DNA of 64,000 nucleotides from assembly GCA_030562195.1 (NCBI GenBank), contig CM060203.1, forward strand, positions 7,082,208-7,146,207, given 5' to 3'. Shown here one piece after another: positions 842-62,765 of the stretch. Source of the stretch: Nipponacmea schrenckii. Taxonomy: Eukaryota > Mollusca > Gastropoda > Lottiidae. The notes beneath the pieces are model-generated. The model ran no database searches and was not told where the DNA came from. It saw only the letters and a program-made list of their open reading frames with translations. The position numbers and the translations under genes are program-made. Position 1 is the first letter of the stretch; each line of letters begins with the position of its first letter.

Positions 842-3800
842 TCACCACCATAGTGTTTCCTGAGGACCAACATTTTCAGGCATTTTATCAGGCCGTTTTC
901 CTATATCGACTGATATATTTGTATAAAGGAATTCTTCTGTTATCTTAAACACTGTATAGTTCATACCCTGTACATCATTTAAACCATCATGAGGCCAACG
1001 ACCACGCCAACCAAAAAATAAATCATTTCTGAAATAGAAAAGCAAAACTGATACTTCCATTTCTTGCAGAGAATGACCTTTATTCACTGGGAATAGAAAG
1101 CGTGGAACCAATACGGTTCTCACACCTGCAAGTCGATGCTAGATACATATTATAAGAGATATTCTCCTATAAAAGCTTAAAAGAATGGCCTAGGAAATTT
1201 CTTCATTATAAATATGAAAAAATATTATTTATAAAAAAAGGGCAGAATATTTCTACTGCATTAAATTTCACTGAGTCATTAACAGTTTTTTTTTTACTAA
1301 AATTACAATAAAGATAAAAGACAAAAACCAACCCATGCTCTGAGCGAGATAATTTAGCATGTCGTACCATTTTAAATCTGCCAATATGTTCCGGTGGACG
1401 GGTAATCAAAAGTCCTGATTCTTGAATTCTAAGAAAAAAAATATTTAAATATACATGTAATATCTGTTCGCTATATCTTTGAATAATTCTCAATTTCAGC
1501 TTTTTGTAACATATAAACCTGTACTCAATATCACACAACTGTAAACCCAGGACATCAACATATTATTGGTACCTCCCCCACAAGCTACCCATAAGTATAC
1601 TTATGTGGCTGATTAAAGAATAAGGAGTTACCTACCTTGCAGAGAGGTCATCGTCCTCGTTGCCCCAACCCCAGTAAGAATTAGAATAACCATTTATACG
1701 CTGGTAGTTCTCTCTATTTATAGCTATCACACCTCCTGCATAGTTATAATACATTACACTGAAAAACAAGGGCAATAATTATGGTTATGGTAGATGGTAG
1801 AGCCTTAGATTGTCCTGCTGGTTGAATTGTCGTTTGCTTGGAGAGTGTAGTAGTTCAGTCAAAGTGAGTATTGTTCTTAAAGGCCAATGCTTTCAAAAAG
1901 TTGAACCTCGTTGACAAGGCAGCTGTAATAAAACTTAGAATTAAAGATCTAGATTTTTTTAGAAGAAAAAGAGTTTATTATAGATATATCATTATTAAAC
2001 TCAGTCAACTTTCTATACATCCAACCCTTATAAATGTGCAGTTACACTTAACCAGTCAGTCACTTAAACACTAGCTACCAGAAATCTCAATGAACCAAGC
2101 ACCACTAGGCCAGTGGCTAGACAGCTATACTTACTGATATCTCATCTCATCAATAGCAGAGGACAAATGTCGAGCGTACTGATCACACATGTATAAGTTT
2201 TGGTTATGTTCAGGAAGCAAGTCAGCGTCATGGAAAACAAAACAATCAAATTTGTTTTGTTTTATAGCTTCTAAATATCCAATATTCATCAGTTTTCCTC
2301 GGTTAAATTTATCATGACCCAGCTGTAAAATTAGGAATAAAGATTTTAAATAGGTATGTACTAAACATAGAACTTTAGTTACCTTTCTGAGATACTAGTG
2401 ATAACATGGACCTAGTGCCATTAAGAGGGCATCAAGGAAACTACTTAGACCTGTATTTACCAAATTGGGGTATAGTACAGCTTAGAAATACCAGCAAACA
2501 CTCGCTAGATAGATTACAATAGTATCTTGATAAAGGGAAAGCAATACACAAATGTTGTTTGCAGTGTTCCTGTCTGTTACTGTAATGCATGGGTTGTGAG
2601 ATGGTCCCTTGGACATCGACATCAAAAAGTGTCCATGGATTTGATTTACCTGTTCCACCACAAATATTTGATAATGAATATTTTGTTTGACCAACATGGA
2701 GTGTAGTCTATTTAATAATATTTTCAGATGGTGAAGACGGTCACGGTAAGGTACTATAACAGCAACTCTCTGCCAAGCTGTACACCCATCAGGCTTATAA
2801 AATCCCCCTTTCTTCACATGCTCATTCTGTTTTCGAATCTCTTCAAACTCTGGGGCTGTGAAAATGTCCAACTTGACTAAATCTGAAAAAATATAAATAT
2901 AAGCTAATGACAGAAATGCAACTATCTTTTAATAAAACAAAACAATATCACTGCTAGGACTAGCTCACATAAGGGGGTATAAAAAAATCAGCTCAAGGCA
3001 ACCTAGAGAGTGTAAGAGGTCAGTTCAAGGCAACCAAGAGAGTGTAAAAGGCCAGTACAAGGCAACCTAGAGAGTGTAAGAGGTCAGTCAGTACAAGGCA
3101 ACCTAAAGAGTGTAAGAGGTCAGTCAGTACAAGGCAACCTAGAGAGTGTAAGAGGTCAGTCAGTACAAGGCAACCTAGAGAGTGTAAGAGGTCAATCAGT
3201 ACAAGGCAACCTAGAGAGTGTAAGAGGTCAGTCAGTACAAGGCAACCTGGAGAGTGTAAGAGGTCAGTAAGTACAAGGCAACCTAGAGAGTGTAAGAGGT
3301 CAGTCAGTACAAGGCAACCTAGAGAGTGTAAGAGGACAGTCAGTACAAGGCAACCTAGAGAGTGTAAGAGGTCAGTCAGTACAAGGCAACCTAGAGAGTG
3401 TAAGAGGTCAGTCAGTACAAGGCAACCTGGAGAGTGTAAGAGGTCAGTAAGTACAAGGCAACCTAGAGAGTGTAAGAGGTCAGTCAGTACAAGGCAACCT
3501 AGAGTGTGTAAGAGGTCAGTCAGTACAAGGCAATCTAGAGAGTGTAAGAGGTCAGTCAGTACAAGGCAGAGATGGGGTAATCGTAATCTGTAATTGTAAT
3601 TAGCTGTAATTGATTACATCTTTTCATGTAATTGCCATGTAATCTGTAATATAACATGTTTTATTACAAGTAATCGAAAATTTGTAATATTCTTATTTCA
3701 GCCAATTATGAACTTTAGTTTACTTATGATTACTCTAATAATCTTTCAAATTGATGAGTGGAAATTCAAAGGTATGGTATGTGGAATGGAAATACAACTT

Positions 3801-12500: not shown

Positions 12501-15500
12501 GCAATTCTGAAATCCTGAGCACCAGAATTCAAATTTATGAGAATACATTTATCTACTCTGACTCCATGTACCATTATGCTTGTCTGTTTTCACTTCTCAT
12601 TCGATTTTCCGTTATCCCCGCTTGTAGCTATAGATAACTTGCTTACTATAGGCTTATCTTTGCTCAAACACTCAATGCCTCAAACTATATACATGTATAT
12701 ATGTTTTAATGTACCACTGACCACTTTCTTCACCGGAAGTTCTATTTTCCAGGTACCAGAAGACATGGCAGTTAAAATAGAATTTCCAGAGTTCGACATT
12801 GAATCAACAACCACTGGTTGCTTGGACTACGTAGAAATAAGACAGAATTTAATTGGCCAACCGGGAGTCAAGTAGGTTATATAGTATTTAAATTTCGAAT
12901 GAACCATGTAGATGATATACGGCGTAAAGTGGAAACTTATCATGTCATCATGAGTGCCAAAGTTGACAACGTTAATAACATATTGCTTCTCGTCCTGTAC
13001 AGTTAAATAGAGCCTAAAACTTTATATCAAATTGTTGGTTTCAGATACTGTGGTAATAATCTGGTATCCACAATGAGAAGTTTACATAACAAGGTCATGG
13101 TGACTTTTAGGTCCAATTCACAAGCCACTAAAACTGGTTTTAGAGCTAAAGCTTCCGTTATCCGTCGTAAGTATGTTCTGTTAGGTTACCTCATGACACA
13201 TTATGAACACTCCAACCACTGTTTACTGATGATTATGGCATTTCAAATCAGCTTACCTTCATGATAGATTGCTGTTGGAATATTCTAATCACTCCCTGGT
13301 GTCCTTTCAGCCGAAGATTACGCCTACAATCCTCTAGATCACGGTGTATCTTACCGAGGTAAGGTGAATTTTACCCATCTTTTCGAACCGTGTCTGCCAT
13401 GGAATCAGGTCACACATTGTCCACACAACCCTTTTACTCCAACGTAAGTTATATTTATTGGCATCTTATTGGTTGAGGTCACAACCGTGTTGACACAGGA
13501 TGCATCTGCTTTCCGGAGGCTTCAGTTAAACGACATGAATAAAAAGCCTTGTGATTGAACAAAAGCGGTTGGAAAAAAAGGTAGGCGAAAGACGCTGGAT
13601 ATATATATATATATATATATATCGCTTAAAGTTGTTGATTGTGTCCATTTAGGTACAGAAGACTAAAGAAAGACATATTTAAATCCTCAACTATTTTATT
13701 TCTTTAGGGGTCTGGAAGCCGACCTGACAGAAAACTACTGTAGAAACCCGAGCGGAGAGGATGCTCCCTGGTGTTATACTAATGAAATGGGCTGTATCAG
13801 AAATTACTGTGATGTTAGCCGTATTGGTAAATCCTCGTTCAATATTACGCCCACCCCCAAATCCCTGAATTTTACCGGAAGTGGTTTGTCATATACTAAA
13901 AACTAGAAACGTTGTTTAAAAAAATACATTTACTAGTTCAGAAGTCAATAACTATACTGCACCAATTGGGCCGATGACGTGAATATAATGCAAATAAAGA
14001 ATTGTTGCCCAACAAGCGTTATAGTGAATAAAGATTGTTTGTAGAATTTTTTTGCTATTATTATTGTAGAAACATTGTTATTATTCAAAAGCATAAACAT
14101 TTACAATTTCAGGTAAAATTCACAATAATTATGATGACTGTGATGCAGTTTTGTCTAGAGACCCTGATTTCTGCCAGAAAGATATCGCAATATCAGGTTG
14201 TGCTGTGACCTGCCAAAATACCTTAAATATACCCCCGGCTGAGCCAAAATGTAAGTCCTTGAGGGTTCTAAGCTCGGAGCACGAAATGGAACAGTAAACC
14301 GAGAACGTTAAAGTTCTCCCAATAGTTGGTAGTTAACAATCGCAAAATGTGGAGGTTAATGTCGCTGTCGATCAAAATTTCCTTTATTGCATGTTGTTGC
14401 CCGTCTTCATTAGCGCATTTAGTGCATAAAAGCAGGTTAAAAGCTAATCATCTTTATTTTATCGCCATCATTAACATGATTATACCCATCACTCCTAGCC
14501 AAAAACAGCAACAGATACCAAAGCAGCCTTTCATAAGAATTAAAAATTGCCTTTGGATATTTTTTCTACACACTCCTCAAAAGACACCAGGACTGGTAAT
14601 CATTGTATATTTCTGTTATTTCAGACCCCGAAGTTCATTGTCCGGCGCCAGAAAAGCTGGACGACTCTACTAACGATGGTGTTAAAGACCAGTATGGTGT
14701 GGGAGAAAGTGTAGTCTACACTTGTACCACAGGATACGATACTTTGACTAGAACGTGTTTATCAGATGGAACATGGTCACATGCTGGATTCGTATGTGGA
14801 GGTAAGGATATTAGAAATAAAATACAGCTTCGTAATCATTTGAAGCTATTCGTAAAGAACAGAAAAACGCAAAGCTCCATTCATTGCATATATGTTACTA
14901 TTGTAGGATGTCGGACGGGATGGTATCCATTCAGAGGGAAGTGTTATAAATATTTCCACCAGGATAGAGACGTGGGCTCAGCTCAGGAACATTGTCAATC
15001 TGAACAGGCCAAGCTAACTACTGTCAAAGATATGGACGAGACCAACTTTGTCGCTTCAATCAGGTAAAGGAACATACATTATGGATTCAGAATTTCGAAC
15101 TGAATCTCCTTCAATAGTCGACAAGGGGCAGACGGAAAATTCAAAAGAATTTCTTTAGTTTCAAAGAGGTGCATTACAGTAGGTTGTAAAACTCCACTTA
15201 TTTCACTTGAAATGTAATAGCCTTTTTTCCAATTTTTCAATTCAAATTGAGAGTAGACTATCTTTTTGCTTCCAGAGAGACAATGTTGAAGATTTGGGTT
15301 GGTTTGAAGAAACAGGATGATGGATGGTACTGGTCTGATGGTACTAAAGCAGAAAACCTTCGGTGGTCCAGTAAGTTTCAGTACTATCCTTTGACAAAGA
15401 CATACCATGGTAGCTCAGTGTCGCCATTTCATATCTTCATTATGAAATAAAAGCTTGGTAGCAAAAACGTGATTTGCGTTGCAAAGTCATTACTACAAGC

Positions 15501-19245: not shown

Positions 19246-22016
19246 TTACCCAATTGTTTTTAAGAAAGCTTTTGGGAACATTTCATAGTTAAACGCCTTA
19301 AAATCAAAAGCATATATTTGTGTCAAATTTTTCAAAATTCGGAACGGGATTTCTTGATACGCATGCGTCAATAATTTATTTTTCTGTTTTTCCCACATAT
19401 TCTTCGTCTCTTGTACTTGACCATAAAGATGGATCAAATGTTCGCGAAATATATTCACATCAAAGGTTCTGTCCGTGTATAAATCTAGAAATTTCTCGGT
19501 GCGTAAGGGGAGATACCCTCCTACTTGGAGCCGCGTCCAAACCCTTTCGGCCAGTCCTTTCATGGAGATACAATCTGATACCTCCCTTTGACGAAATATC
19601 CTAAAATACGAATTTATCATAAGAGTTATGTCCTCGATTTCACTTTTGAAAGATTGGAATTTATCCAATTGATCCAAAAGATTAAATTTTCGAAGCATGT
19701 ATTTTGCTTCAATGTCAAACGACTCCATTTTACCAACGAAATCCGGTTTCAATAAGCATGGACTGCAAGCATAAAACAATGGCTTCCACAAATCATTCAT
19801 CTTCTCAGGTTGTCGACTGTCAGAAATGACGTAATCCAAAAATTCTTCAAACGTGACATCGTGTCCACACTTTTCACTCTTTCGACTTGGATGTTTTCGT
19901 TTCATCGAAATTTCCTTTCCGACAGTCGACCACGTGATCGGGAGATACACATTCTCGATATACGCATGCCACAGTCGCGCGTATGGATTGCTTACGAACA
20001 TCATCTTAGTTGTTGCGTCCACTACAAGTTGGTCGTTTTCGGTTTGTGGATGATATAATTTGAAATGTTCCTTCAGGCTATTTTGGGCTATGACCACATT
20101 CAAATCTACTGGACTCATCACAGACTGATCCCCATCTTCATTCTGAAGTGACCTATGATTAATTTTAAAACTCATTACTTCCTTAAGAAGGATATAAAAT
20201 CTAAAACTTGAATGGAATGCATCACTCAAAGTGCTAGAATAGAGTATAAGTGTAACGAAACAATTTATATACTAGTACGTATACAGTCGTTCTAGATAAT
20301 AATATGTTCAATACGTAATAAGTACTAAAATTTTAATAAACCAGATAATGGACAATGTGAGGGACCCCACAGGGCTCATTCTCGGGCTTAAAGACATTTT
20401 GAGAGCTTACTTAAATAATATCCAAACTTAGTCAAATAAACGTGATCCGCACAACTCACTGACGTAATCTGAATGAGTTCAGATTATGTCAACTGGACCT
20501 TCTTCAGTGTCAGTCTTGTTTTTTAAGAGATGGAAAATTGAAATATATATGGTTTGAGAAGACAGGAGAACTATCATATTCGCTAGTGAATACACAGAAA
20601 ATTGGAGATACCCAAAGTTCTGGAGACGAACAGATAGTTTGATGTTATCGGATAAAACAGATTCTGTTATTTTTTTTTATCCCATGGGTCATCCTAAAAG
20701 TTCCTTTCTACAAATTCAATTTACTAGAAAGAAACCCAGTACGTACGTTTATGATAAAAAAAAAAACCCAAACGCTAAGCTCTTTCCCTTTTCAAAAAAC
20801 AATTTGAAAACAACGGTACTTTACAAAGACAGTGTGAAAATAACAAAATCATTGATAAGAACAAAAAAAACGTATACGTACTTGAACGTTTGAAGCCAGA
20901 ATTTGGAGCCGGCGTTTGGAAGTACACAATACGATAATCCAACGGAAGAATCTAGCACGACAGACTCCACGGATCCAGATTTTGTTCCAGCACAGACCTT
21001 TTCTATTAGCTCTTTTCTAACGTTCTGATCTTTTTCTCTCGGGCCTATTGTTTTTGTTTGATGTTTGGCGCCGAGTAGAATCTGAGAACAGAAATGAAAA
21101 TAAAAAGGAAGTTTTACGCTAAAAACAGAGTTTGTGCAATGTTTTTGTCTTTCTGCTTCTGGTCGGGTAGATGAAGACGCCACAGCATTATAGACACTTT
21201 AATAGTAACTGATATACTTCTACCTTTGGATTTTTCTTTTGAAACCTTAAGGGATTTTTTAGGTAAATTTAAAGAGTGACCCTAGCCTTTATTGATAGGT
21301 ATTTTGAATACACTAATTACCTGTTTAACGTTGAAACCAGAAAATATTCCTTGTGGTGAAACTGGAATAGAAAATATGGAAAATACAGATGGAATGAAAC
21401 GAGTAAAATGCATGTATGCCCTACTGTCCCGTTACTAATTGGACTAATGAAATGGAATGGAGTACGACCTACTGTTTTTTTACTGCATATTGCGCTTCCA
21501 TAATTACTATTGCTTTATATCGTGTTTCACTAAACGAATGAAGTATAAAACATTTGACCTATTGTCAGAGCAAATCAAAGAAAACATTTGATCTATTCTA
21601 TATTTATAATGAAAATTAGTATATCAGCCTAAAAATAGTACCGTAAGTCTTAGAATGTCCTTGCGTTTATAATTTTTTGTGGGTTTCACTGAAACTTGGC
21701 CTCTCTAAAAGCATATTTTTAAAATATGTGCTCGTATTCTAAATTTTTATCAGCGCAAAGGCGGTCTTAGACTAACAGTACTGTTTTTGACGCTGCTATT
21801 CCAATTCTCATAAAAATAATGGGAAAAAAAATACAACTGAATAGACAAAGAATGCTTACCTTTCATTATACCAAATAAGATAATACCAACCAGGCATAAT
21901 AACAACAATAAGAAATGGCTCCATTTTTCACACATTTTCACCAATTTGATTTTGCAGAGTCTGCACATACCTTTGTTGCAGCATCTAAATTCGTCGAAAC
22001 TGATAAAATTTGACAT
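19246..22016 (-). CDS. Carbohydrate sulfotransferase-like protein (Sulfotransfer_2 / CHST type), 4 exons
   Basis: Exons (minus): 22016-21860, 21361-21321, 21081-20882, 20152-19246; 434 aa. Exon 1 carries a short Cys/Lys-rich cytosolic tail and a membrane anchor (FLLLLLCLVGIILFGIM), so a type II Golgi enzyme is expected. Exon 2 is a 41-nt microexon that fits the phase exactly. The last exon is the large catalytic part: FVSNPYARLWHAYIENVYLP at the 3'-phosphosulfate-binding position and DVTFEEFLDYVI, typical of HNK-1/dermatan-type CHSTs. The 5' PAPS motif reads CVLPNAGSKFW, where family members usually have a Lys after the Pro (PK), and the usual RDP of the second motif is SNP. The enzyme may therefore have altered or lost activity. 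Acceptor glycan unknown. Confidence 0.82.
21321..21361 (-). CDS. 41-nt microexon of the sulfotransferase-like gene
   Basis: A consensus acceptor (TTCTATTCCAG) and donor (CAG|GTAATT) bracket 41 nt. With the single base left from exon 1 it encodes VSPQGIFSGFNVKQ and restores phase 0 for the next exon. Omitting it would break the frame, which supports its reality. Confidence 0.65.
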
Positions 22017-22939: not shown

Positions 22940-28045
<5,106 letters not shown>

Positions 28046-32558: not shown

Positions 32559-32969
32559 GGTGGTAACGGACAGAAACTCTTCAGAATATCAGACAACTTA
32601 AGACACACCAATCTCGGAAAACTAAGGTAGGTTGATAAACATTTTGCATTTTAAAAGCTTTGAAATGCTCAATCAAGATCTAAAGCTAATAAAAAAAAGG
32701 TATGAGGACCAACATTTTTGGAAATAGAAACTAGCTTAGGATCTTCGGACTATAAACGTTAGAGGAAATAATCAAACTGATTAAACAAGGGTGTTACGAA
32801 AATGGAAAAAAAATATGCATAATCTCAAATCAACAAAGTTCAGTCAAAAAAGCGCATTTTCAATAAACAGAATTTCTACCTGATTTTCTGCCATATTTAT
32901 GAATTAAGGAATATGGTTTCAACCACTGACTATTTTTTGGGAGACATTTTTATCTTATTGCCATTTCAG

Positions 32970-33386
32970 ATCAGCGCCATGAATCCTTTCCAAGTTATAA
33001 ATTGTGGAGCTGCTTTGACTGTCTTTCTGATCATTTCCGACATGACCATGGTATTTTCTGCGTCTACGTGTCATCGTATGATCGGACATCGCACCATCAA
33101 GTTAGGTAACTGCAGAGAAAAGAGAATCCCGACTTTCGGATGCCAGGGAAAGTGCGAGTCGCATACCAGAACATCTCCGTTCGACCCTTCCGTAGTAGAG
33201 CGGTCGTGTTCGTGTTGCCAAGAACTAAGCAAAATGGAGGTTCCAGTAGAAATATTGTGCCCAAGGAAAAACGGTATGAGGGGCTATAGACGAGTTATTA
33301 TCAGAGTACAGCAGATCACGGCGTGTATGTGTCGATCTTGTTCTAACGCAATCAATCTTCAAGCTGCAGAAAACCTTGTGGACTGA
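32970..33386 (+). CDS. Bursicon-like cystine-knot hormone (CTCK family)
   Basis: The coding exon follows an acceptor at 32968-32969. The ATG at 32979 is chosen because it lies just inside the exon and starts a signal peptide (AALTVFLIISDMTMVFSA); the product is 135 aa. The mature part, about 107 aa, carries the C-terminal cystine-knot pattern: CHRMIGHRTIKLGNC, IPTFGCQGKCESH (the C-x-G-x-C ring), ERSCSCCQEL, VEILCP and a terminal CMCRSC. The spacing and the phrases RSC.CCQE and CMC..C are closest to bursicon alpha. In arthropods bursicon heterodimers activate the LGR receptor rickets. Molluscan bursicons are known, but their role is less clear. A norrin- or DAN-like relative is the alternative. 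No beta partner is seen in this window. Confidence 0.78.
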   Translation: MSAMNPFQVINCGAALTVFLIISDMTMVFSASTCHRMIGHRTIKLGNCREKRIPTFGCQGKCESHTRTSPFDPSVVERSCSCCQELSKMEVPVEILCPRKNGMRGYRRVIIRVQQITACMCRSCSNAINLQAAENLVD

Positions 33387-49989: not shown

Positions 49990-52900
49990 TTGGTTTAGTG
50001 CTTTAAAGTATCTTGGGAGTATCCACAAATATTCTCACTTAAAATTACGGATAAAACATAATGCCTTAGTAAGTTAGTTGCATTAAGTTTTTATCCTAAA
50101 TCGCGATTAGTGCATAAAACTATTGATTGTAGAGAAAACAGAATGTTACTCTTATCATATGCATATAGATGTAGTGAGTTTCTGACAATCGACTGTTTGT
50201 TAGTGCACCTTGGTCCATACAAAACATATACTCATCCCGGCTTGTGGAACTAAAGACACTTGATCAAAACAAACACCGCGATGTATGTAACTTGAAGTGA
50301 AATCCACTATTTTTTCCTCTGGCACTCAAAAAGGTTAATTTCACAATCCCTTGAGCGTGTTTCATGCATTCGTGGATTGTAAATCAGATACAATCCACAA
50401 TCCAAAAACATTCGAGTAGGTATTAGCACACCAGTTACCACTCTTAGCCTAGTGCTTCAATCCAGTGTACAGCCGTAGGTATGGAATATACAATATATTA
50501 TAATCGTCTTGTTGTATATTTAAGAATAGCTGATGTTATCAATCCAATAAATTCCAGGGCCCGGATCTGTTCTTAAATACAACGATGATGAATCACTAGA
50601 TATCACCTAGTTCTAAAGTAGTCAAAGCAGTGAAGAATCTTGAAGGTTTATCTGAAAGGATATGTATGAGTCTCATTTGTCTATCTACACCGTAAGAAAT
50701 AGTCTGGACTTTACCACAATAAAAATAGCAACTGTATCATAGCTGTATTATTACCATGCGCTAAAGTATAAAACGACACATGTACTTGTGTATAAATGTA
50801 CAGTATACTTTTTGCACTTTTGCGTTCATGTACTCGAACGCAAGAAATTTGTCCATCTAACAAACATGTACTTTGTACATTGAAACATTTGTAAATTGTT
50901 ATGGTTGCAATTCATTACCGAGATGTTACAGAGCGAGAGCAGAAAGTCTTAGACCATTTGACAGCTTTGGCGAAAAACTAAGTAAGGTTAGTGGCATATC
51001 AAATTTACAAGCACACAAATTGTAGGTTGTGGTGGGAAAACTCATTTTCAATGACCGAGGAAACTATCCCGGTGCAATGTCGGTGGTTAGCTAGAAACAA
51101 TAGTTTCAAATAGCATTAATCTGATTAAATTTCACGACTTCTTTTCAGAAAAAGAATAAGCCTTTTATCTGATTGGGTTTACGGGTTGTTTGAGTTTTAG
51201 TTACCTGACTATTTTTCAGAATTAAACAAAAAAATCTCAATGAGAGTAAACTTGCACTTCCACAAACCTTTCAAATCAATCTGTTCTCGAGGATATATTA
51301 TCTCAATTGCAATCCTGTGTCTATCATTTAGAATAATATACAGTCTGTTAAATCGTCTCACGAGGGTTGTTTCCCGTTCACCCGTGTGATAAAATCACGC
51401 ATATTGCATTCAACAATACAATACGTCGATTTGAGAGAACAGTTTCACCAAATACAATGAGCTGTGTAAAAGTAAAAAGAAAAGTTATTGTTTGTCCGGG
51501 TCCACATTCATCTTAATAATGTTTGTAATCACAGTATCTCTTTCAGAGATTCTATGGACAATCACAGATGATTTCAATATTATCTTAGTCGATTCGGCAT
51601 CTTTACAGAGTTGACATTACGATGAAAGATTGTTGCAATGGGGTATGTCAACTCAACACTTCTCTCAAGAGGTTTATATTGCTAAATGTTAATTTTATAA
51701 TGTAGCAATTGATATGAATATGAAAATATAGTACGCCAACTCTGCATCATTTTCAAATGAAATGAATGAAATTTTACGTCCCACCTTTTTGCACCTTCTG
51801 AGCAAATGAAGATGGGGGCATCCTTTTCAGATAAACCAATAAGCTTCATTTTATAAACTTGAATTTATATTCATATCAACCAAATACAGATAATGGCATT
51901 CTTGTATTTTATTGTAGACGAATCTTGTTTTAATTTGAAAGTGGGTACCGGTACCAGTAATTTTAATAGTTTATAATCCGAATGAATGATTAGAATAAAA
52001 GAATGTGTGAATGAATGATATATTGCTATTCTGGACCGGCAATGAAAGTAAACTAGCCAAGGAATCGATGAATATGGCGACAGATTTGAATATGATATTT
52101 TTAAGTTCGATTTTACACGTCACTGAGGATTGTATTGACCCCAATATATATAATAAATTCTATGAAATTGAGGGAGGAACTTAAGAAAGAAGGTAAGTTG
52201 AATTTCTATTTAGAAAAGATTCAGGGTGTTAAAAAAATTCATCAGCTTTGTGGAAACTCTCACCTCCCAGTGCGCTTTTGGATTTTCATTGATATATTTA
52301 ACTCATTGGTGTATCTAACTCATTGTGTATCTAACTAATTGGTGTATCTAACACATTGATGTTTCTAACTCATTCATGTATTTTGTTCATTCGTGTATCT
52401 AACTCATTCATGTATCTAACTCATTCATGTATCTAACTCATTCATGTATCTAACGTATTCATATATCTAACATTATCTGACATTTCATAGTGATAAGTAT
52501 AAGTTGCATAATTGCTATTTTATACTTAATCTCAGCAGTGCATACGATTTTCGTACGAAATCTTGCAGACCAAAAATCTAGAAAGATCTTGAAGACTATT
52601 GGAATGCTGCTGTCGGTGCAATTCCATACTAACATTGAAAACTGCATGTCTTTATATGTTCAAGCAAGAGTAGAAACGTAATGTGTAAAACTACTTTTGA
52701 TTGTTCTCTTTTAAGGCACTATTAGGTGACACTTTAAAATGATGTTTTTACTGAAATCAAATGAAGAGGTAGTCAATCGACAGTCTGAGCACTTAAAAAA
52801 AAGCGGTTGTTGAGTGAGTTGCTAAATGGACTTGTTTTAGGCCATTATTGTGATATTTTCCTCTCCCAAAACCTAGAAAATGACAGAACTTATGCATTTG

Positions 52901-53817: not shown

Positions 53818-56800
53818 ATGAGATTTCGGAGATCAAAATCGTGTTTTAAATTGATATTAGTGCTTCCTTTTATATGGTTTATCTACCTTGCAGTAACTAT
53901 CCTAATTTTAGATCGATCTACAGACCATTTCACGCATTCAAAATATAAGGAGGCAGGAAACCAGGACAGTAACGTTGTACATAATTTTAATGTTGGCAAA
54001 AATGAAGGAATTTTTAACTTGAATGATCAAAATGTTCAAGGAAATCACAAAGACCAAGACAATCTTGCCGAAAATGACGTAGAGAGGGAAAACCACCTTG
54101 CGCCATTGATTCATAAAGCAGCAGAAGAGCAAAATAAAATTGTGGGAAATATTGGCGTTGCTGAGGCTAGGGATAAAGCACAAGGCGAGAACATCGAGGC
54201 TAAAAAAGCTCAAATACGCGAGCAAGTCAAAGAGGCTGAAGAGGCAGCAGGAAAAGCCTTACTAGAAATGAAAGATGGCGGGCAGGAAGAAGAGAAAGCA
54301 GAAGAACCAAATGAAGAGGTCGTAGTTTTTAACCCTGGCGATATGAAAGTAGAGGGTCAAGAGGATATCTTTAAAAATGGACCAGGTGAGTTGTTTCTTA
54401 TTTTATTAGTAAAATCAACAGTGAAATATAACACCGATAGTGGATTGTATCCGAGATGGACCTGTAGGCGCTGTCGATACCTCGTCAGTTGTCATGAACC
54501 GCTTATCTATGTTGCTCTTTGGCGTTTGGTCCATCTTTTCTAGGATTTGATACAAATGCATTGTCTGCTATCACAAAAGATAGCCGAGAGAACTTTAAAC
54601 CAATTTTTTCCGAAATTTTAATTGATAGATGCTAATGCTCTGACTATTTTGCCTCATATAGGTGAAGGAGGAGATGGTGTGAACATCAAGAGGGATGAAC
54701 TGACTGAAGATCAGAAGAAGACATATGATGCTGGTTGGTCCAGTAATCATTTCAACCAGTACGTCAGCGACATGATCTCTCTCCACAGGTCTTTAAATGA
54801 CACCAGAATACCCGAGTAAGTATTGGATTTCATTTGGTTGTTGATTCAAAACTGTACAATGACGGCTTCTTTGAACAATGACCGCGTACAATGCTGAGTG
54901 TGGCAGTTGAAACAATCTCTCTTGAACAGAGTAAGGATAAGAATATTCAGATTACAACTGATTCCCCCCTCCCTCCCCTTCACAATAACTTTATGAGGTA
55001 TTTCAAAGACTGTCTGTCTGTATCTACACAGGGTCGTAGGAGGCTACATAAAGGCTATCCAACAATCACTGACGAAAAATAAGGGGTCATTTAAAGGCTT
55101 AAATTCAGAAAATTTATTAGGGATTGCTTATTGTAAAATTAGTTTAAGACATTTAAATTGATCAGATTCGCACATTTGACACTCATAAAAACACTTGAAT
55201 ACCAGGGTGGAGATATCTTTACTACTAATAAGTTGTGTTTGTTTTATTCTCTTGCTTCTAAGGCGATTCCAAACAACATTACTGTTTTTGTCAATGGAAA
55301 GTATTTCTTTCAGATGTAAAAACAAAATATATCAACTGGAAAAACTTCCCGATACAAGTGTGATTATAGTATTCCATAACGAGGCCTGGTCCACGCTTCT
55401 AAGAACTGTTCATAGCGTAATCGATAGATCGCCACCATCTTTACTGAGGGAGGTTATTCTAGTGGATGACTTATCTGACATGCGTAAGTAAATATACCTA
55501 CTATTCAAAATAACTTTCCAATACACATCTATAGGCCTTCACGTGTATGATAATATCAAAAGTAAGCATATTAGCAATTTTCTATTTCAGGTCACCTGAA
55601 GGCACCCTTGGACAGATACATCAGTAAACTGGAAAAAGTCAAACTAATCAGATCTCCAACACGGATTGGACTGACAAGGGCCAGACTCGTGGGGTTCGAA
55701 GCTTCGAAAGGCAAGACAGCTACTTTCTTGGACTCACATTGTGAATGCTTTCCAGGTAGGACGAAAATTTGTATACAGCTAGTAGATCTAGGTACAGCTG
55801 TAGATTGAATATAGCTGGAGGCTGGGTCATGTAGCAATTGACATGTTCCGGTATATAGTCTTCTCTATACACGTCAATATAAGTTGCAGCAATAGCCTTC
55901 AGACGCAGCACTTGGTCTGAAAGTTGTTATTAGACGCAACAGTAAGTTTGCAAGTCATTGTAAACTGTGTAGTAGAGTCAAGTACCAAATAATTTGTATG
56001 TTACTTTCTCCAGACGAAACAGTAGTTCTTAACGCCACTATTGCAGCTTTAATCGTGTGTGTTGTTTCAATTATTAATTGAAAACAAATGTAACAGGCTT
56101 GACACTTGTGATTAAGTACTTATGTAACACTACATACATTCAAATGAAAATACATTGAACATACCAGAAATGTTAAAAAGATAAAACTGACCCTAAAAGG
56201 ATCAATTTACACTATTCGATTTTTCAGGAAGACATCTGTGGTCTCTGCTATTCCACCAAAGTGATCGTTTGACGATCTGCTTTGAATAAATGGCATCATA
56301 AAACAATTATATTTTGTGGAATTGCAGGAATCACAGACTATATCACTTTGAATAAATGGCATCATAAAACAATTAATTTGTGTGGCATTGCAATCACGGA
56401 CTTCTTGAAGAAAGTTGGAATGGTTGAATGGTTGAAATCAGCGTCCTCAATACACATGACCATTTACCTCTTTACAATCTCATTAAATATCCATCACATG
56501 TTATTGATTGTGGATTCTTTAAGGGAGATGTCGAATTGGCATTCCCAAATACAAAATGAACATTATAAGCTATGTGTTCTAAAGCGAGAAAGCGCTATAT
56601 ATTGTGTTTCCACGCACCTTCCCCTATCACTAAGTAAAGAAAGTGTTCACGATCGCATTCCATACATTTTACACCGTAGGTTGGTTAGAGCCAATGCTAA
56701 CTAGAGTTGACGAAGATCCTAAACATATAGTTTATCCTGTAATCCAAGTCATTTCTGCCAAAACATTCACACTTAAGGCCCGCAAGCAACGACGAGAAAA

Positions 56801-59800
56801 AATAGGAGGAATTTCTTTGAAGGCGCTGACGTTTACTTGGAAAGGCATCCCTGATTTTGAACGCCAACGTCGCCAATCCGAAGCCGATCCCATCAGGTTT
56901 CCACTTCAATTTAATTTGCTACACAAGCTTTTAGAAATCCAAAATTATGCTTCCTTCTCATTGCATCTGTGGGTTTTCCATTTAACCATATTCTCTCAAC
57001 CACTCTCAACCCATTCTTACGTTAACCACTTCCCAACTGTTGCTCGAGGGACATCTTTGCAGGACACATTCCACCAAGGAAGCTATTACAACGGATCTTC
57101 ATTCGATCACCCAGCTTTCAATTGCCTGTCATCAACCTGATTTACTATTGTAAGGGTACTTCGTCCAAGCATTTTACCTACCGTACCAATACCGTATTTC
57201 AAAAGTAGTAGCTGAAATTTGCAAGAGGAAACGCCAATATTAGACGCTTTTTTTCCTTTCCTTTCTTCTTTGTTTCTTTGTTTCTATTTGTAGGATGGCT
57301 TCAACCACTGTAAGCCCGTATAGCTGAAGATAATCGTCATGTTGTTTTTCCAAGCATATTTTTTGTATATTACACAAATTTTAAAATTTCTACGACACTG
57401 AGATTTAAATATGGAGTTTTCTCCCTTAGTGACATGGTTTTTAAATGGAAAAATGTGCTTATCACCGGAAATCGGACGTTGATCCAATCAAGTATTATTC
57501 CACGACTTGGCCTTATGACACATTCAAATTGCATGTCTTATTATCCCCCTTGATGACGATCGGAATGGGATTGGTGGTTAAATACCTTTATGTCTCCTTT
57601 ATCACACAACAGAACCATTTTCACTCTTTTTTGGGCTTACTTTGTACGGGGTCATATCTGTTATCCTTTTAATACGAGAAGATATTTATACGTATACGTA
57701 CACACAATACAACTAGGACTGCAGGAATTTCTTTTGATAAATAATTTAGGCAAGAATATAGGGTAAATACTGGTTTAGATTAAGGTGTTACAAGTCATAA
57801 TGAGTCATTATATCCCACATCTTTACAATGTCAACCTGTTATGATATTCGTCTCATACCTTGCAACGTACCAAAATATGCCCATAACTCAGCTTTAATGT
57901 TTCTAGTTTTTCTGTCGATGGCTTTGATTGGCTTCATTCGCAAGTGTACACTATATTCAAATCACTGAATACCGTGATATAGTCAAGGTATAAAAAGAAG
58001 GTCGTAATAGCTTGATACTATGGTCGAATCTCTTGAATATCAATTCTTTGGTTGCAGTAATTTCCTTTGACGCATTACATAAACAGATTCCCCAAAAATC
58101 GGAAGCTCGAATCGTTCCGACATATATATTGCTATAAATGGAACTCCTCTGTTTGTTATAGGATGGCTGGAACCTTTGGTATTTAGAGTTTTAGAAGACC
58201 CTCACCATGTTGTTTTTCCGGTTATTGAGGACATAGATGCTAACACGTTTTTTACTCGAACTAGCATTGTCAGTCATCTAGGGATCTTTGACATGCGCTC
58301 CTTGATTTTCCTTTGGCGAGGGATAGACCAAAGAGTAAAAAAATATTGGAATCCAACAGACGCTATCAGGTTCGACAAACCTCAGATATGTTCGAAACGA
58401 ACGAAACACATAAAACCTCTTTTCTGGAAAGTTGTCCCAACGTTTGGTTTCTCTTTTTATCTACTAGACTGTCCTGCTTTCTCTTTAAGATTTTTAAGTT
58501 TTATTTCTGAAACTAGAAATCAGATAACAAAATCCCATGTCAACATAATTCCTGTTACCCGCCTAATTCTCCTCACAAGAGTGTCTTCTCTTCAAACCAA
58601 TTATTTAAGCCCTACTATGTATAAATGTGCCCATCAGAAGTATTTTATTTATCACCAAAGCGTACCTACCTTCAAGAGAATTAAAAGTTGCACTTAAATC
58701 AATACATGTAAAACCAGTTTTGATTTCTGTTTTTTTTTTGGCACTTGGGTACCTTACAATATCGTCCCGATGTTCTTGAAGAACAAAATACCAAAGGATG
58801 ACAATGCTACCTTCAACTTTTGAAAATTTGAGTCCGATTCTTTTAACTTCCAGGATGGCTAGAACCAATCTTATTCCGGATTTACCAGGAGCCAAATCAC
58901 GTGGTGTTCCCCTCTATTGCAAATATAGACGATGCCACCTTTGGTACTAAGAGTGGCCCTCTCATATTTCATGGGGTGCTTGATATGGCCAATTTAAATT
59001 TTTGTTGGAGACATATTCCAGAAAGTATCAAAAGTAAATTAGAACCAACAGATGCTGTCAGGTTAGATCCCTTGCCCCAGTAATGAGTAGGAAATATAGC
59101 AATACTGTAAACATACTTGGTTTTGGTGAACTACATATACTACTATATTACTATTATTATACTCATCCCCCAATTCATATAAAAACCTGCTAAAATACAC
59201 TGGTATATAGGTCCCTGTTCCTGCTTCTCGAGCAACCCCCTTATACTTATGTACACTCATGCCATTCCCATCTATTCAATTGCCTTGTACTAAAAGTGTA
59301 ATCTTAGTTTCGTCAACATCACTGACAATATTGAAACAAAAACAGAGGACGTATTAAACCTTAAAAAAACGTAGACTTACACTTACGATCTAAGTTGTTA
59401 AAACATATAGCAAAGTGGTATTGTATTATACTATATCATTGCCAATAATCTAAAAAGTCAAGTCACTTCTACAAAATTGCATATACTGTAGTATTAAACT
59501 TTTTAACATAAGTAAATTGCGAAATATCAATAATAAAACGATCCAATCAACATAATATTATGCTTCTTTTAGCTTCTACTTCCGGTAAACTGGCCGTTAT
59601 CCATCAATCTAATGCTCAGGAAAACACAACAATTCTCGACAATTATAAAAAGTTACCACAAGTCGGTCGGATCCCTTATAACTACATTTGAAAGATACCA
59701 TTGAAAACGTTACTAATGGAAATGTCTTTGTAGGTTGGCTCGAGCCTCTCTTGGAAAGAATCTATGAAGACTCCACACATGTGGTTTTCCCTATGATTAA

Positions 59801-62765
59801 TATTATTCACGACGATACGTTCTATACCAAGGGCCATATCCAGTTAACAATTGGTACATTGGACATTAGATCTTTGACGTTTACTTGGAAAGGCGTTCCC
59901 AAACCTGATAATCCTATTGCCGCGATCAGGTTCGATTACAATCTCTTTGGAATGGGTTAGCTTTATTCATCTTAATTGTCTTGAAAGGCAACTTAAGACA
60001 CGTTACTTTTTTTGTTGTTGATGACTTTCTACCGTGAGTTTGAAATTGACACTCTTGTTTCTGTTTCTTGGCCGATCTATTAAATTCGGAGAAAAAAAGT
60101 ACCCTTACCAGTTTCCCCACCCGTACCCGACTGGAACTGGACCCTTGTCCTTTATTTTCTTTTCTATTTAAAACTTAGAGAGCTGCATGGTTTAAGTTAG
60201 TTTGGTTTCGGTAAACTGGGTTTCGAGTTCTTAAGGGTTTCAAGTCAGTTTGGATATATTATTATCTTCACATCTTAATCTTTAACTGAGGGAAAGGGTA
60301 GGCTGTTCCTAAAGTTGAGATAAAAACTGACTCTCGACCCTTTACAGATCTCAAAATACTCGTATTTATTGGTTATGGTTCTTGAGGTTACTTTGGTGGT
60401 TTGGGGTTGATTTGTTGTGTTGATAAATTTTACCATGAATACATTTTCAAGTCAGTTTTTAAAGTAAATAAAATTTACATTGAGTGAAATATCGGAATAT
60501 TAATTTTTCCGTTCTTAATCCTGTTTAAATAAAGCTTTGGTTATTGATAGGTTTGAATACGGGATTGAAATAATCCATCGAATCTGGTAATTTTTTCCAG
60601 ATCACCAACGATGCCCGGCGGATTATTCACAATAGACAGGGAGTACTTCAAATTGATCGGCACCTATGACCCCGGCCTCGATTACTGGGGTGGGGAAAAT
60701 ATGGAACTATCCTTCAAGGTAAGAATTACTAAGACTGATAACTTACTGTGCTTGTTTGAATTTTAAAATCAAAATCACACGCTTGCGACGCTTTGAAGCT
60801 TTTGAAAACCCTACCATAACTACATTTTTGCTCTGGTTCCCCTGAAATTTGTATTTGACAGTGGCCATGAAAGACATGTATTCTCATATTATGATGGTTT
60901 TATAATTTTTCAAGGCATGGATGTGTAATGGTAGTGTAGAGGTTATCCCATGTTCAAATGTAGGTCATGTGTTCCGAAAGAAAAACCCTATAACATGGCC
61001 CGGGGGTGGCGACGTGGCCAGGAGGAATTCTATCCGGGTAGCCGAGGTTTGGATGGACGAATACAAATACAAGTATTATGAAAGAATTAACAATGATTTA
61101 GTAAGTAGACCTAGTATTTTACGCTTTGGGAACTTAAGCCCTATGTATTCACATACAGCTTTCAGAACGAACGGCTCTTTTTTGCTGGAATTTTTCCACT
61201 ACTCATAACAAAATTCAATGAAATAATCTCACCTATACAGAAAGTTCATTGTGTTACTTGAAATACACATATATCAGTACTTTTTCTATCGTCCTCACCG
61301 TCTGGCTGGTGCCAAGACATGTGCTCAGCTCCATTATCACTTTCCTAATTGTAGTTAGATTTTGGTGATGTATCTGAAAGAAAGAAACTGAGAAAGAGTC
61401 TTAACTGCAAGTCATTTAGTTGGTATGTTCAAAATGTCTATCCCGAGCTCGCTCTACAGAATGACGCAATTAGGTCAGGAGAGGTAAATAAAAGCTTTGC
61501 ATTATCATCTTTTCTATTTTTGGATAAAAAAAGAAGGATGGGGAAACGGATCCTAACTGGAAGTCTGATGAGTTAGAAACTAGAATTGTAAAAAAATTTC
61601 TTCTGGTAGTCTTACACTCATATACTTCAAACACTCATCCATTTCATTGCATGATTAAGCCTGCAACATAATATAGTACACGTTTACTACAATATGTCCA
61701 TTTATGTTTCCAGTTAGTAAATGACGGCCACGCCAAATGTGTGGATTCTTACGGAGATCAAAAATTATTGAGATTTGGCGCTTGTCATCATAAGGGATAT
61801 AACCAGGTTTGGATATTTTTTATTGCCTTAAAAGGGATTTTTTTGTCAAAATTGTTTTTTTTTAACAAGGGCTCAATTTGATCTAGGCGACATAACTTCC
61901 CAATGGCAAAATTGGCGTCAACTTGTAATCACACATATTCGGAAAAGGAATTTCGATCACCTTTGGGGCTGACAAGTTTGTGTGCATCATTTTGGTAAAT
62001 AGTATATGTACGCATGGACGCCTTACAGAGTGAACTTTACTAAATGTATTCTAATCTTTATCATTTTCACAGTTTTGGCAATTGACGGATAAAGGTCAAA
62101 TACGTCAGTCACCAAAGACGTTTTTATGTGTCAATGGCGATAAACCGAGGGTAGCTGTTAGATGTACGGGCATTCCGGAATGGGTGTACCAAGAGGTAAG
62201 CCAGACACTTGTCGATTCCAGTGCCTTGGAAGCTACGGGCTTGTTTGTTTGATGTTGTGATGCTCTTTCAATTTGAATGTTTTGACAGTTTAAATTCAAT
62301 TTGCTCAAGTTTGTATTTTTAAGTGGAAAATATATTTCACATTTTGCATCTAGTCTGGCTACCTGTTGGACATAGATTCCTTTAGCATTCACTCTACAAT
62401 CCATAGTCAGTTCCTGTTATTTTATGTAACTAATGATAAGGCTAGCCAAAGAATGGATTTAAAAGGTGGACAGTAAGCACCCATGGCGCTGTACATCTTA
62501 AAACCAATGTTACTGAAAGCTTCATTGATTTTCATATTATGAATAACCAAAGAATGGATTGAGACAAAGCCTTTTTCAGTCTAGATATATTCAAGTAACT
62601 GTGGTTTAATTTCAGGATCGAACGTTAATGAACCCTGCTACGGGGCTGTGTCTGCAGCCCAGTTTGAAGAAAGAGAACAGAGATTTTATCATGGCGGAAT
62701 GTCGGGGGACACAATGGCAAAAATGGCGATTCTATCTCAAAGAACTCCCAGACATCGTGAAGTAG
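53818..62765 (+). CDS. GALNT: Polypeptide N-acetylgalactosaminyltransferase (GALNT) with mutually exclusive catalytic-domain exons
   Basis: Constant exons: 53818-54385, 54662-54815, 55314-55483, 55591-55755, then one of four cassettes (56680-56896, 58162-58369, 58854-59061, 59734-59929), then 60601-60718, 60915-61100, 61355-61483, 61714-61806, 62073-62195, 62616-62765. The length is 683-690 aa depending on cassette. The ATG at 53818 starts a basic tail and a signal anchor ([20 protein letters not shown]), followed by a long charged stem (about 150 aa). The catalytic domain shows [28 protein letters not shown], the metal motif [19 protein letters not shown] and SNVGHVFR with its metal-binding His. 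The C-terminus is a ricin-type lectin domain with QFWQL and QKWRF. It starts mucin-type O-glycosylation in the Golgi (GalNAc to Ser/Thr). The catalytic metal ligands are all in constant exons. Confidence 0.95.
56285..56410. repeat. Direct duplication upstream of GALNT cassette A
   Basis: Two adjacent copies of about 65 bp starting GAATAAATGGCATCATAAAA then CAATTA, ending in a GCAATCAC(A/G)GACT-like phrase. It lies in the intron before cassette A. Confidence 0.75.
56680..56896 (+). CDS. GALNT cassette A (217 nt)
   Basis: Acceptor ACACCGTAG, donor ATCAG|GTTTCC. Encodes [20 protein letters not shown] through [15 protein letters not shown]. It is 9 nt longer than cassettes C and D and carries a basic insert ([13 protein letters not shown]) between the [10 protein letters not shown] and LTFTWKGIP segments. 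Phase at both ends equals the other cassettes (217 = 3n+1). Confidence 0.9.
57294..57491 (+). pseudogene. GALNT cassette B, decayed copy
   Basis: The acceptor (TATTTGTAG) is intact and the product starts GWLQPL, but the next codon is TAA (57311-57313). Homology continues ([32 protein letters not shown]) and ends in a VDPIK-like segment that lies in a shifted frame. Length 198 nt is 3n rather than the 3n+1 of the live cassettes, which agrees with a net frameshift. The donor position keeps GT (ATCAA|GTATT). It is described as found and not restored. Confidence 0.85.
58162..58369 (+). CDS. GALNT cassette C (208 nt)
   Basis: Acceptor TTTGTTATAG, donor ATCAG|GTTCG. Encodes [20 protein letters not shown], then [27 protein letters not shown] and PTDAIR. 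Same boundary phases as A, D and E. Confidence 0.92.
58854..59061 (+). CDS. GALNT cassette D (208 nt)
   Basis: Acceptor AACTTCCAG, donor GTCAG|GTTAG. Encodes [20 protein letters not shown], then [27 protein letters not shown] and PTDAVR. Same length as cassette C. Confidence 0.92.
59734..59929 (+). CDS. GALNT cassette E (196 nt)
   Basis: Acceptor TCTTTGTAG, donor ATCAG|GTTCG. Encodes [20 protein letters not shown], then [27 protein letters not shown] and NPIAAIR. It is the closest in wording to typical family members ([10 protein letters not shown]) and the shortest cassette. Confidence 0.93.

What the first reader, a model, noticed from the sequence alone, without database searches (positions are those of the whole stretch)
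55591..60718. Frame-enforced mutually exclusive exon array in the catalytic domain of a GALNT
Four intact homologous exons (A, C, D, E) and one decayed copy (B) lie in series between constant exons 55591-55755 and 60601-60718. The upstream exon ends after codon position 1 and the downstream exon begins at codon position 3. Every intact cassette is 3n+1 nt (217, 208, 208, 196), so one cassette keeps frame while none, two or three break it; four together would also keep frame but would duplicate the segment. The swapped segment follows the DSHCEC metal motif and ends before SPTMPGG. In human GALNT2 this region, as I recall, includes residues lining the acceptor-peptide groove (around Val255, Phe280, Trp282). 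Metal ligands stay constant, so the array could produce isoforms with the same chemistry but different peptide preference. Alternative exons are known elsewhere in GALNT genes, but I know of no described array of this kind at this site.
Basis: partly seen in the sequence, partly recalled or inferred. Interest (0 to 1): 0.92.

Follow-up and report, generated by a model that had tools for sequence, protein, structure and literature searches.

The report
Swappable peptide-groove exons in limpet GALNT
A limpet gene for an enzyme that attaches the first sugar of mucin-type chains carries four interchangeable versions of the exon that shapes its protein-gripping groove, so one gene can probably make four enzymes that prefer different target proteins.

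Summary
The array is real. A complete GALNT gene (11 coding exons per isoform) spans 53818-62765 (+). Between constant exons 55591-55755 and 60601-60718 lie four intact homologous cassettes (A, C, D, E) and one decayed copy (B). Each single-cassette mRNA is open (683-690 aa); skipping all cassettes, or joining any two or more, gives an early stop. The cassettes are old and constrained: synonymous differences are near saturation, yet all four stay open. The nearest relative is a Lottia gigantea model with an A-type cassette. No limpet RNA was available. In Pacific oyster, five deposited proteins of one homologous gene differ at exactly this segment (one, X6, also lacks 35 lectin residues), so the site is a multi-choice exon there. 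On GalNAc-T2 numbering the cassette holds 5 of 8 listed hydrophobic groove contacts: Phe280 and Trp282 stay fixed, position 255 is V/D/N/I in A/C/D/E. Alternative GALNT exons are published at other places (pgant5 gating loop, pgant9 lectin domain); I found no report of this site, with the gap that one paper names GALNT13/gly-5 events without positions. Most likely: mutually exclusive exons retuning acceptor choice. Exclusivity in limpets and altered specificity are inferred.

The parts
53818..54385 (+). coding exon 1: cytoplasmic tail, hydrophobic anchor segment, stem
   Evidence: ATG at 53818, donor CAG|gtgagt; hydrophobic stretch read by eye, no transmembrane predictor run
54662..54815 (+). 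coding exon 2 (stem, start of catalytic unit)
55314..55483 (+). coding exon 3 (HNEAW region)
   Evidence: Pfam PF00535 on isoform E from residue 256
55591..55755 (+). coding exon 4, constant, ends with DSHCECFP (DxH metal motif); last codon split after position 1
56680..56896 (+). cassette A (217 nt); position 255 = Val; basic loop, net charge +6
   Evidence: 62 of 73 residues identical to the L. gigantea cassette
57294..57492 (+). cassette B, decayed copy: in-frame stop at 57311-57313, donor GT lost
58162..58369 (+). cassette C (208 nt); position 255 = Asp
58854..59061 (+). cassette D (208 nt); position 255 = Asn
59734..59929 (+). cassette E (196 nt); position 255 = Ile
60601..60718 (+). coding exon 6, constant (SPTMPGG ... 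YWGGEN); first base completes the Arg codon shared with the cassette
60915..61100 (+). coding exon 7, constant (VGHVFRK; segment of the catalytic flexible loop)
   Evidence: single copy in the window
61355..61483 (+). coding exon 8
61714..61806 (+). coding exon 9 (start of ricin-type lectin domain)
   Evidence: single copy
62073..62195 (+). coding exon 10 (lectin domain)
62616..62765 (+). coding exon 11 with stop codon 62763-62765

Best explanation
A limpet member of the PGANT9/GALNT5-like group of polypeptide GalNAc-transferases carries an array of mutually exclusive exons for the strand-loop-strand segment that follows the DxH metal motif and forms one wall of the acceptor-peptide groove. 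Splicing joins constant exon 4 to one cassette and that cassette to exon 6. SHOWN: the gene structure, four intact and one decayed cassette, the phase lock that makes every other combination stop early, long constraint on the cassettes, and the same swap in deposited oyster proteins. INFERRED: that limpet transcripts use one cassette at a time; that wrongly joined mRNAs are removed by nonsense-mediated decay; that weak cassette donors (CAG|gtt in 4 of 4) let regulators choose; that the isoforms keep donor chemistry and the proline pocket but differ in acceptor preference through position 255, its neighbour 254, and the loop around 262-271.
For: Only 4 of 16 cassette combinations are open, the four single ones; the other 12 stop 614-1236 nt before the last junction. 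Cassette donors have T at +3 in 4 of 4, against 1 of 9 donors of constant exons (Fisher p 0.007). Synonymous differences: pS 0.65-0.87, dS not calculable in 4 of 6 pairs, dN 0.45-0.73; the two finite pairs give dN/dS about 0.2 and 0.3. Neutral simulation leaves 5.0% (0.5 substitutions per site) to 1.2% (1.5) of cassettes stop-free. Cassette A has a counterpart in L. gigantea, 62/73 identical (flanks 148/163 and 137/145), where C, D, E match only 32/70, 26/70, 33/63. Oyster: P0014, P0024, P0030, P0032 are 298/298 and 271/271 identical outside the segment, and with P0022 the cassette pairs are only 29-41 of 70-73 identical; an older gene model, P0121, reads three of these cassettes in a row. GalNAc-T2 passages list Val255, Leu270, Phe280, Trp282, Tyr284 among 8 hydrophobic groove contacts (PMC4432651 passages); W282A nearly abolishes activity there, and F280/W282 are kept in 50 of 50 rows that cover them, 4 of 4 limpet cassettes included. 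Position 253 is Ile in 4 of 4. Position 255 is Val in 13 of 13 canonical rows that I chose, yet varies in 8 of 10 arrays, the highest mean pair difference (0.77) of 28 canonical-invariant positions. Fold: L. gigantea protein model pLDDT 87.3, cassette blocks 79-98, best PDB match PGANT9 6e4r.
Against: No RNA from this species or any limpet was available, so exclusivity and use of C, D, E are not shown. A scan for docking/selector pairing found nothing: shuffles did as well in 19 of 24 (5' docking) and 16 of 24 (3' docking). Position 255 is not outstanding in each array alone: in the limpet array it ties with 254 and 273, in oyster 279 and 254 have more letters, and two of ten arrays (Armadillidium, Ephemera) do not vary there. 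The ten arrays are not independent, and eight come from gene models that run copies together. No isoform of the window could be modelled (spliced proteins are not accepted). In the oyster X3 model the end of the cassette is weak (pLDDT blocks 58 and 64). A protein search with C, D and E joined found nothing at E 0.001, so those three cassettes have no seen counterpart elsewhere.
Confidence: 0.78

Rival explanations
1. Relic array: one cassette (A, the one kept in the L. gigantea model) does the work, and C, D and E are rarely used and on the way to decay like B.
For: B is plainly decayed; the L. gigantea model shows an A-type cassette only; C, D and E had no counterpart in the protein search; all cassette donors are non-consensus at +3.
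Against: Four of four cassettes are open with AG/GT sites after near-saturating synonymous change; chance survival is a few percent each, before counting indels and splice sites; F280, W282 and I253 are kept in all four. Gene predictors usually keep one of several exclusive exons, so the L. gigantea model says little. The oyster gene uses several.
Confidence: 0.12
2. Cassettes are alternative for a reason other than acceptor choice, for example stability, partner or lectin-domain contact, or a catalytically dead decoy isoform.
For: Variation is spread over the segment, including the stretch after Trp282 (17-20 residues and shortened in E) that lies away from the listed groove contacts; the net charge changes from +6 (A) to -2 (D, E).
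Against: Constant catalytic motifs, F280/W282 and I253 are kept in all four, against expectation for dead decoys; three listed groove contacts (255, 270, 284) vary. In pgant5 and pgant9, where splice pairs were assayed, acceptor preference was what changed (PMC12776162 section 3, PMC6115407 passages).
Confidence: 0.25
3. The cassettes are not exclusive by regulation; several are spliced in together and the products are only cleared by decay.
For: Every multi-cassette form stops early; no docking/selector signal; all sites look U2-type GT-AG, so no spliceosome incompatibility (by eye).
Against: It needs most transcripts to be wasted with four cassettes; oyster proteins show clean single swaps, though proteins could not show wasted RNA.
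Confidence: 0.1
4. Assembly artefact or separate genes.
For: None found.
Against: Introns between cassettes are unrelated (no blastn match between them at E 0.01) and cassettes are only 24-35 of 66-70 residues alike, so this is not a mis-assembled repeat; each cassette lacks the rest of a gene, and constant exons occur once.
Confidence: 0.02

Closest known systems
Drosophila pgant9 exon 8A/8B (PMC6115407, passages read)
   Same: Same enzyme group (best PDB match); two interchangeable exons change acceptor preference; tissue-specific.
   Different: Lies in the lectin alpha repeat (~30 aa), two choices; here it is the catalytic groove segment, four choices. The window's lectin exons are single copy.
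Drosophila pgant5 A/B (PMC12776162, passages and Introduction read)
   Same: Catalytic-domain splice variants with different peptide preference.
   Different: Residues 398-457: flexible gating loop plus helix-turn-helix, two choices; the homologous window exon (60915-61100) is single copy.
GALNT13 / gly-5 tandem duplicated exon events (PMC9741552, section 17 and passages read)
   Same: GALNT genes with homologous exon swaps, called convergent across vertebrates, arthropods and nematodes.
   Different: The text names the genes but not the positions, so overlap with this site cannot be excluded from what I saw. Nematode gly-5-like isoforms P0184/P0185 differ only in the lectin alpha repeat.
Crassostrea gigas GALNT5 isoforms X2, X3, X5, X6 and P0014
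   Same: Same segment, same boundaries to within a residue at the protein level, five cassettes.
   Different: A different gene lineage; retains a canonical cassette (X6 type). Its five cassettes are not one clade (AU p 8e-6). I saw deposited proteins, no paper.
coq-2 a/e exons in helminths, annelids and molluscs (PMC7434440, passages read)
   Same: Mutually exclusive exons remodel an enzyme core and switch substrate.
   Different: Unrelated enzyme, two choices, small-molecule substrate.
Dscam1-type exon clusters with docking/selector RNA pairing (PMC6071210, passages read)
   Same: Array of more than two exclusive exons.
   Different: Far fewer choices here, and no docking/selector signal found from one sequence.

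Membership tests
Polypeptide GalNAc-transferase (GT27) | GT-A glycosyltransferase domain with DxH and WGGEN motifs | tested here: met
   PF00535 E 5.9e-29 for isoform E; DSH and WGGEN in constant exons; PDB best match PGANT9 E 5.4e-146
Polypeptide GalNAc-transferase (GT27) | C-terminal ricin-type lectin domain | tested here: met
   PF00652 E 2.1e-14
Polypeptide GalNAc-transferase (GT27) | type II membrane anchor | tested here: inconclusive
   hydrophobic stretch near the N terminus read by eye; no predictor run
Polypeptide GalNAc-transferase (GT27) | transfers GalNAc to Ser/Thr of peptides | not testable with these tools
   -
Mutually exclusive exon cluster | tandem homologous exons of the same phase between constant exons | tested here: met
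Mutually exclusive exon cluster | zero or multiple inclusion is not productive | tested here: met
   12 of 12 other combinations stop early
Mutually exclusive exon cluster | transcripts contain exactly one cassette | not testable with these tools
   no limpet RNA; in the oyster homologue proteins carry one cassette each, except gene model P0121 which strings three
Mutually exclusive exon cluster | a physical device for exclusivity: steric crowding, U2/U12 mix, or docking/selector pairing | tested here: inconclusive
   introns of 484, 672 and 1265 nt between intact cassettes argue against crowding; all GT-AG; docking scan negative on one sequence
pgant9-type lectin alpha splice pair | duplicated lectin alpha exon | tested here: not met
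   lectin exons single copy in the window
pgant5-type gating-loop splice pair | duplicated exon for gating loop and helix-turn-helix | tested here: not met
   exon 60915-61100 single copy

The most novel reading that the evidence does not exclude
The groove-wall exon of GALNTs is a recurrent evolutionary hot spot. Separate lineages (limpet paralog, oyster GALNT5, arthropod PGANT9, another mollusc GALNT) have multiplied this one exon, each keeping donor-site and proline-pocket residues and exchanging position 255 and its surroundings. One gene thereby offers a panel of acceptor specificities, doing by splicing what vertebrates do with about 20 GALNT genes and what abalones seem to do with gene copies of the same subfamily.
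Probability: 0.4. Interest if true: 0.78.

Novelty: new variant of a known kind. Interest (0 to 1): 0.64.

Why it matters
What sets the acceptor choice of GALNTs is a long-standing question, because they have no clear consensus motif. Here nature supplies matched enzymes that are identical except for about 70 residues of the groove, four in limpet and five in oyster. Assaying them on peptide libraries would show directly which groove residues set preference. It would also show a way to diversify mucin-type glycosylation without adding genes, in animals that depend on mucus, adhesives and shell matrix.

Tried and rejected
Docking/selector scan: a plain scan of 18-nt windows in the two outer introns against the inner introns was no better than shuffled docking introns (worst-of-targets: 19 of 24 and 16 of 24 shuffles as good; sums: 5 of 24 and 20 of 24). 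With one sequence and no conservation this is weak evidence either way.

One shared origin of limpet and oyster arrays: cassette trees rest on 72 columns. With all 39 rows the limpet cassettes, Lottia A, B and Patella group at 80/88; after I dropped three long rows (B, Lineus, one abalone) the limpet group falls to 47/35, and a forced mix of oyster X2 with window C and D is not rejected (p 0.263). So separate origin is likely but not proven.

My first mapping of Phe280/Trp282 to the FDW motif, made from memory, was wrong by six residues; one search corrected it to the FxW pair, which removed an apparent loss of Trp282.

Expectation that 255 would be the top position in every array: not so.

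Cassette-only protein search with C, D and E joined: nothing at E 0.001. Own-genome search did not complete. Tree of constant parts: 2 of 38 rows dropped because the boundary pattern did not match (P0020, P0132). Unbiased pair scan: of 18528 protein pairs among 193 hits, 112 shared enough words to align; same-gene-like pairs differing at the groove site were all oyster proteins, those differing at the lectin alpha repeat were nematode or unnamed proteins.

Full report
CHECK OF THE OBSERVATION. The stretch 55591-60718 reads as described. I extended it to a full gene model on the + strand: exons 53818-54385, 54662-54815, 55314-55483, 55591-55755, one cassette, 60601-60718, 60915-61100, 61355-61483, 61714-61806, 62073-62195, 62616-62765. 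Internal exons have AG acceptors and GT donors. The isoforms have 690 (A), 687 (C), 687 (D) and 683 (E) residues. Isoform E matches the GT2 glycosyltransferase domain (PF00535, E 5.9e-29) and a ricin-type lectin (PF00652, E 2.1e-14); its best solved relative is Drosophila PGANT9, 6e4r, E 5.4e-146.

PHASE LOCK. All 16 combinations of the four intact cassettes in genomic order were spliced in a script. The four single ones are open. The empty form and all 11 multi-cassette forms stop early, 614 to 1236 nt upstream of the last junction, so they are candidates for nonsense-mediated decay (inference). The finding's remark that four together keep frame is wrong: the total length is a multiple of three, but each later cassette is entered out of phase.

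COPY B. It starts with a good acceptor, has TAA as its seventh codon (57311-57313), and has AAG|TATTAT where a donor should be. It is a dead cassette and was not mended.

AGE AND CONSTRAINT. Cassettes are 24-35 of 66-70 residues alike. pS is 0.65-0.87 and dS cannot be calculated in 4 of 6 pairs; dN is 0.45-0.73. Introns between cassettes show no blastn match to each other (E 0.01). In a neutral simulation only 5.0% (0.5 substitutions per site) to 1.2% (1.5) of cassettes stay free of stops. The four have thus been kept open by selection for a long time. One oddity: A and E share an identical 20-nt tract (56827-56846 and 59875-59894), which hints at a past gene conversion or a shared element.

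SPLICE SITES. The four cassette donors are CAG|gttt, gttc, gtta, gttc. T at +3 occurs in 4 of 4, against 1 of 9 donors of constant exons (Fisher p 0.007). Weak donors are expected of regulated exons (inference). Introns between intact cassettes are 484, 672 and 1265 nt, too long for steric crowding by my recollection of the usual limits. A docking/selector scan was negative.

WHERE IT COMES FROM. The closest protein is L. gigantea LOTGIDRAFT_131969 (P0004): 62/73 identical in cassette A, 148/163 before it and 137/145 after it. On constant parts (36 rows) the window gene groups with it and with a Patella vulgata GALNT5 protein (98/92), and these with six abalone proteins (100/99), apart from the canonical GALNT5-like genes of limpets. 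The window is therefore from a limpet near Lottia, and the gene is a gastropod side branch of the PGANT9/GALNT5-like group. Abalones have several separate genes of this branch, for instance P0036 and P0041, only 132/320 alike before the segment. That reads as gene copies doing what limpets do with exon copies; this is inference.

THE SAME SITE IN OTHER ANIMALS. In C. gigas, proteins P0024 (isoform X5), P0030 (X3), P0032 (X2) and P0014 are identical over 298/298 residues before the segment and 271/271 after it. P0022 (X6) is identical too, except that it also lacks 35 residues of the lectin domain. The five cassettes are only 29-41 of 70-73 alike. This is one gene with at least five choices. 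An older gene model, P0121, reads three of these cassettes in a row, which fits tandem exons. Two of the types, X2 (P0031) and X6 (P0023), also occur as full 642-residue frames on contigs no longer than 2.6 kb from a source labelled lgn; I take these as transcript-derived, which the tool does not say. Gene models that string two to five copies of the region occur in Diaphorina citri (5), Armadillidium (4), Blattella, Ephemera and Timema (2 each), with the copies ending earlier, near FDWNL; and in a different GALNT of Pinctada, Littorina, Elysia and Batillaria (2 each). Those are inferences from gene models, not shown isoforms. In an unbiased scan of 18528 pairs among the 193 fetched proteins, 112 were close enough to align. 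Same-gene-like pairs that differ at the groove segment were all oyster proteins. Other such pairs differ at the lectin alpha repeat, as in Steinernema P0184/P0185, and a few elsewhere.

HOW IT PROBABLY WORKS. Passages of PMC4432651 give the hydrophobic groove contacts of GalNAc-T2 as Val255, Leu270, Phe280, Trp282, Tyr284, Phe361, His365 and Phe377. On the solved chain numbering the cassette spans 232-302, so it holds the first five. In an alignment of 61 rows, Phe280 and Trp282 are kept in 50 of 50 rows that cover them (11 shorter arthropod copies end before), all four limpet cassettes included. That paper found that Trp282Ala nearly removes activity. Position 253 is Ile in all four limpet cassettes; it is a donor-site neighbour by my recollection of engineered GalNAc-T2 (a PDB title names an I253A mutant). 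Position 255 is V, D, N, I in A, C, D, E; V, N, N, T, N in oyster X6, X5, X3, X2 and P0014; V, I, N, Q, R in the Diaphorina model. It is Val in all 13 canonical rows that I picked. Among 28 positions invariant in those rows, 255 has the highest mean within-array difference (0.77; 8 of 10 arrays vary). Limits: the ten arrays are not independent, Armadillidium and Ephemera do not vary there, and in the limpet and oyster arrays taken alone 254 and one other position do as well or better. The loop 262-271 also differs, with net +5 in A and +1 in C, D, E. So the chemistry and the shared proline pocket appear fixed, and the rest of the groove wall is exchanged. Changed acceptor preference follows by analogy with pgant9 and pgant5 (PMC6115407 and PMC12776162, passages plus the latter's Introduction).

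STRUCTURE. The L. gigantea protein folds as a GALNT (mean pLDDT 87.3; ten-residue blocks over the cassette 79-98) and matches PGANT9 6e4r_A first (E 1.1e-53) and peptide-bound GalNAc-T2 2ffu_A at TM 0.79. Oyster X3 folds too (mean 80.9), but the end of its cassette is weak (blocks 58 and 64). Window isoforms could not be modelled.

WHAT IS KNOWN. Ten searches of an open-access library brought up pgant9 (lectin alpha), pgant5 (gating loop) and a review-like analysis that lists GALNT13, Pgant5 and gly-5 as having tandem duplicated exon events, without positions (PMC9741552 section 17). None of the listed titles or passages that I saw describes an exon array at the groove segment or in mollusc GALNTs; longer result lists were seen only in part (15 of 103, 10 of 902), and subscription journals are missing. 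PMC6994419 (passages) calls a Biomphalaria enzyme the only investigated mollusc member. The kind (exclusive exons in a GALNT) is known; the site, the number of choices and the recurrence look new.

VERDICT. A genuine exon array, very probably spliced exclusively, most likely tuning acceptor choice. New variant of a known kind.

Noticed in passing
56827-56846 and 59875-59894: Cassettes A and E share an identical 20-nt tract although synonymous sites are otherwise near saturation; possible gene conversion or shared element.
   Followed up: partly
P0132, P0145, P0146, P0148 (protein hits): A different mollusc GALNT has gene models that run two copies of the groove segment together (Pinctada, Littorina, Elysia, Batillaria), a likely second exon pair.
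   Followed up: partly
P0122, P0123, P0124, P0125, P0126 (protein hits): Arthropod PGANT9-like gene models string 2-5 copies of a shorter form of the segment, suggesting further arrays.
   Followed up: partly
P0073 and P0075 (protein hits): Two Sinanodonta proteins on one contig are close in the constant parts but far apart in the groove segment.
   Followed up: no
2482-2925 (-): Open frame matching Glyco_transf_7N, E 6.2e-26 (beta-1,4-galactosyltransferase-like).
   Followed up: no
19249-20271 (-): 341-residue open frame matching Sulfotransfer_2, E 1.3e-22; with the two glycosyltransferases, three sugar-modifying genes in one window.
   Followed up: no
3020-3613: Repeat of about 36 bases open on both strands (STRQPRECKRSV / CLVLTDLLHSLG).
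   Followed up: no
14600-15064 (+), 27280-27780 (-), 32823-33383 (+): Open frames matching Sushi, weakly an immunoglobulin V-set (below its cut-off), and DAN (cystine knot).
   Followed up: no
52286-52471: Tandem array, period 17, 11 copies, about 1.3 kb upstream of the gene's ATG exon.
   Followed up: no
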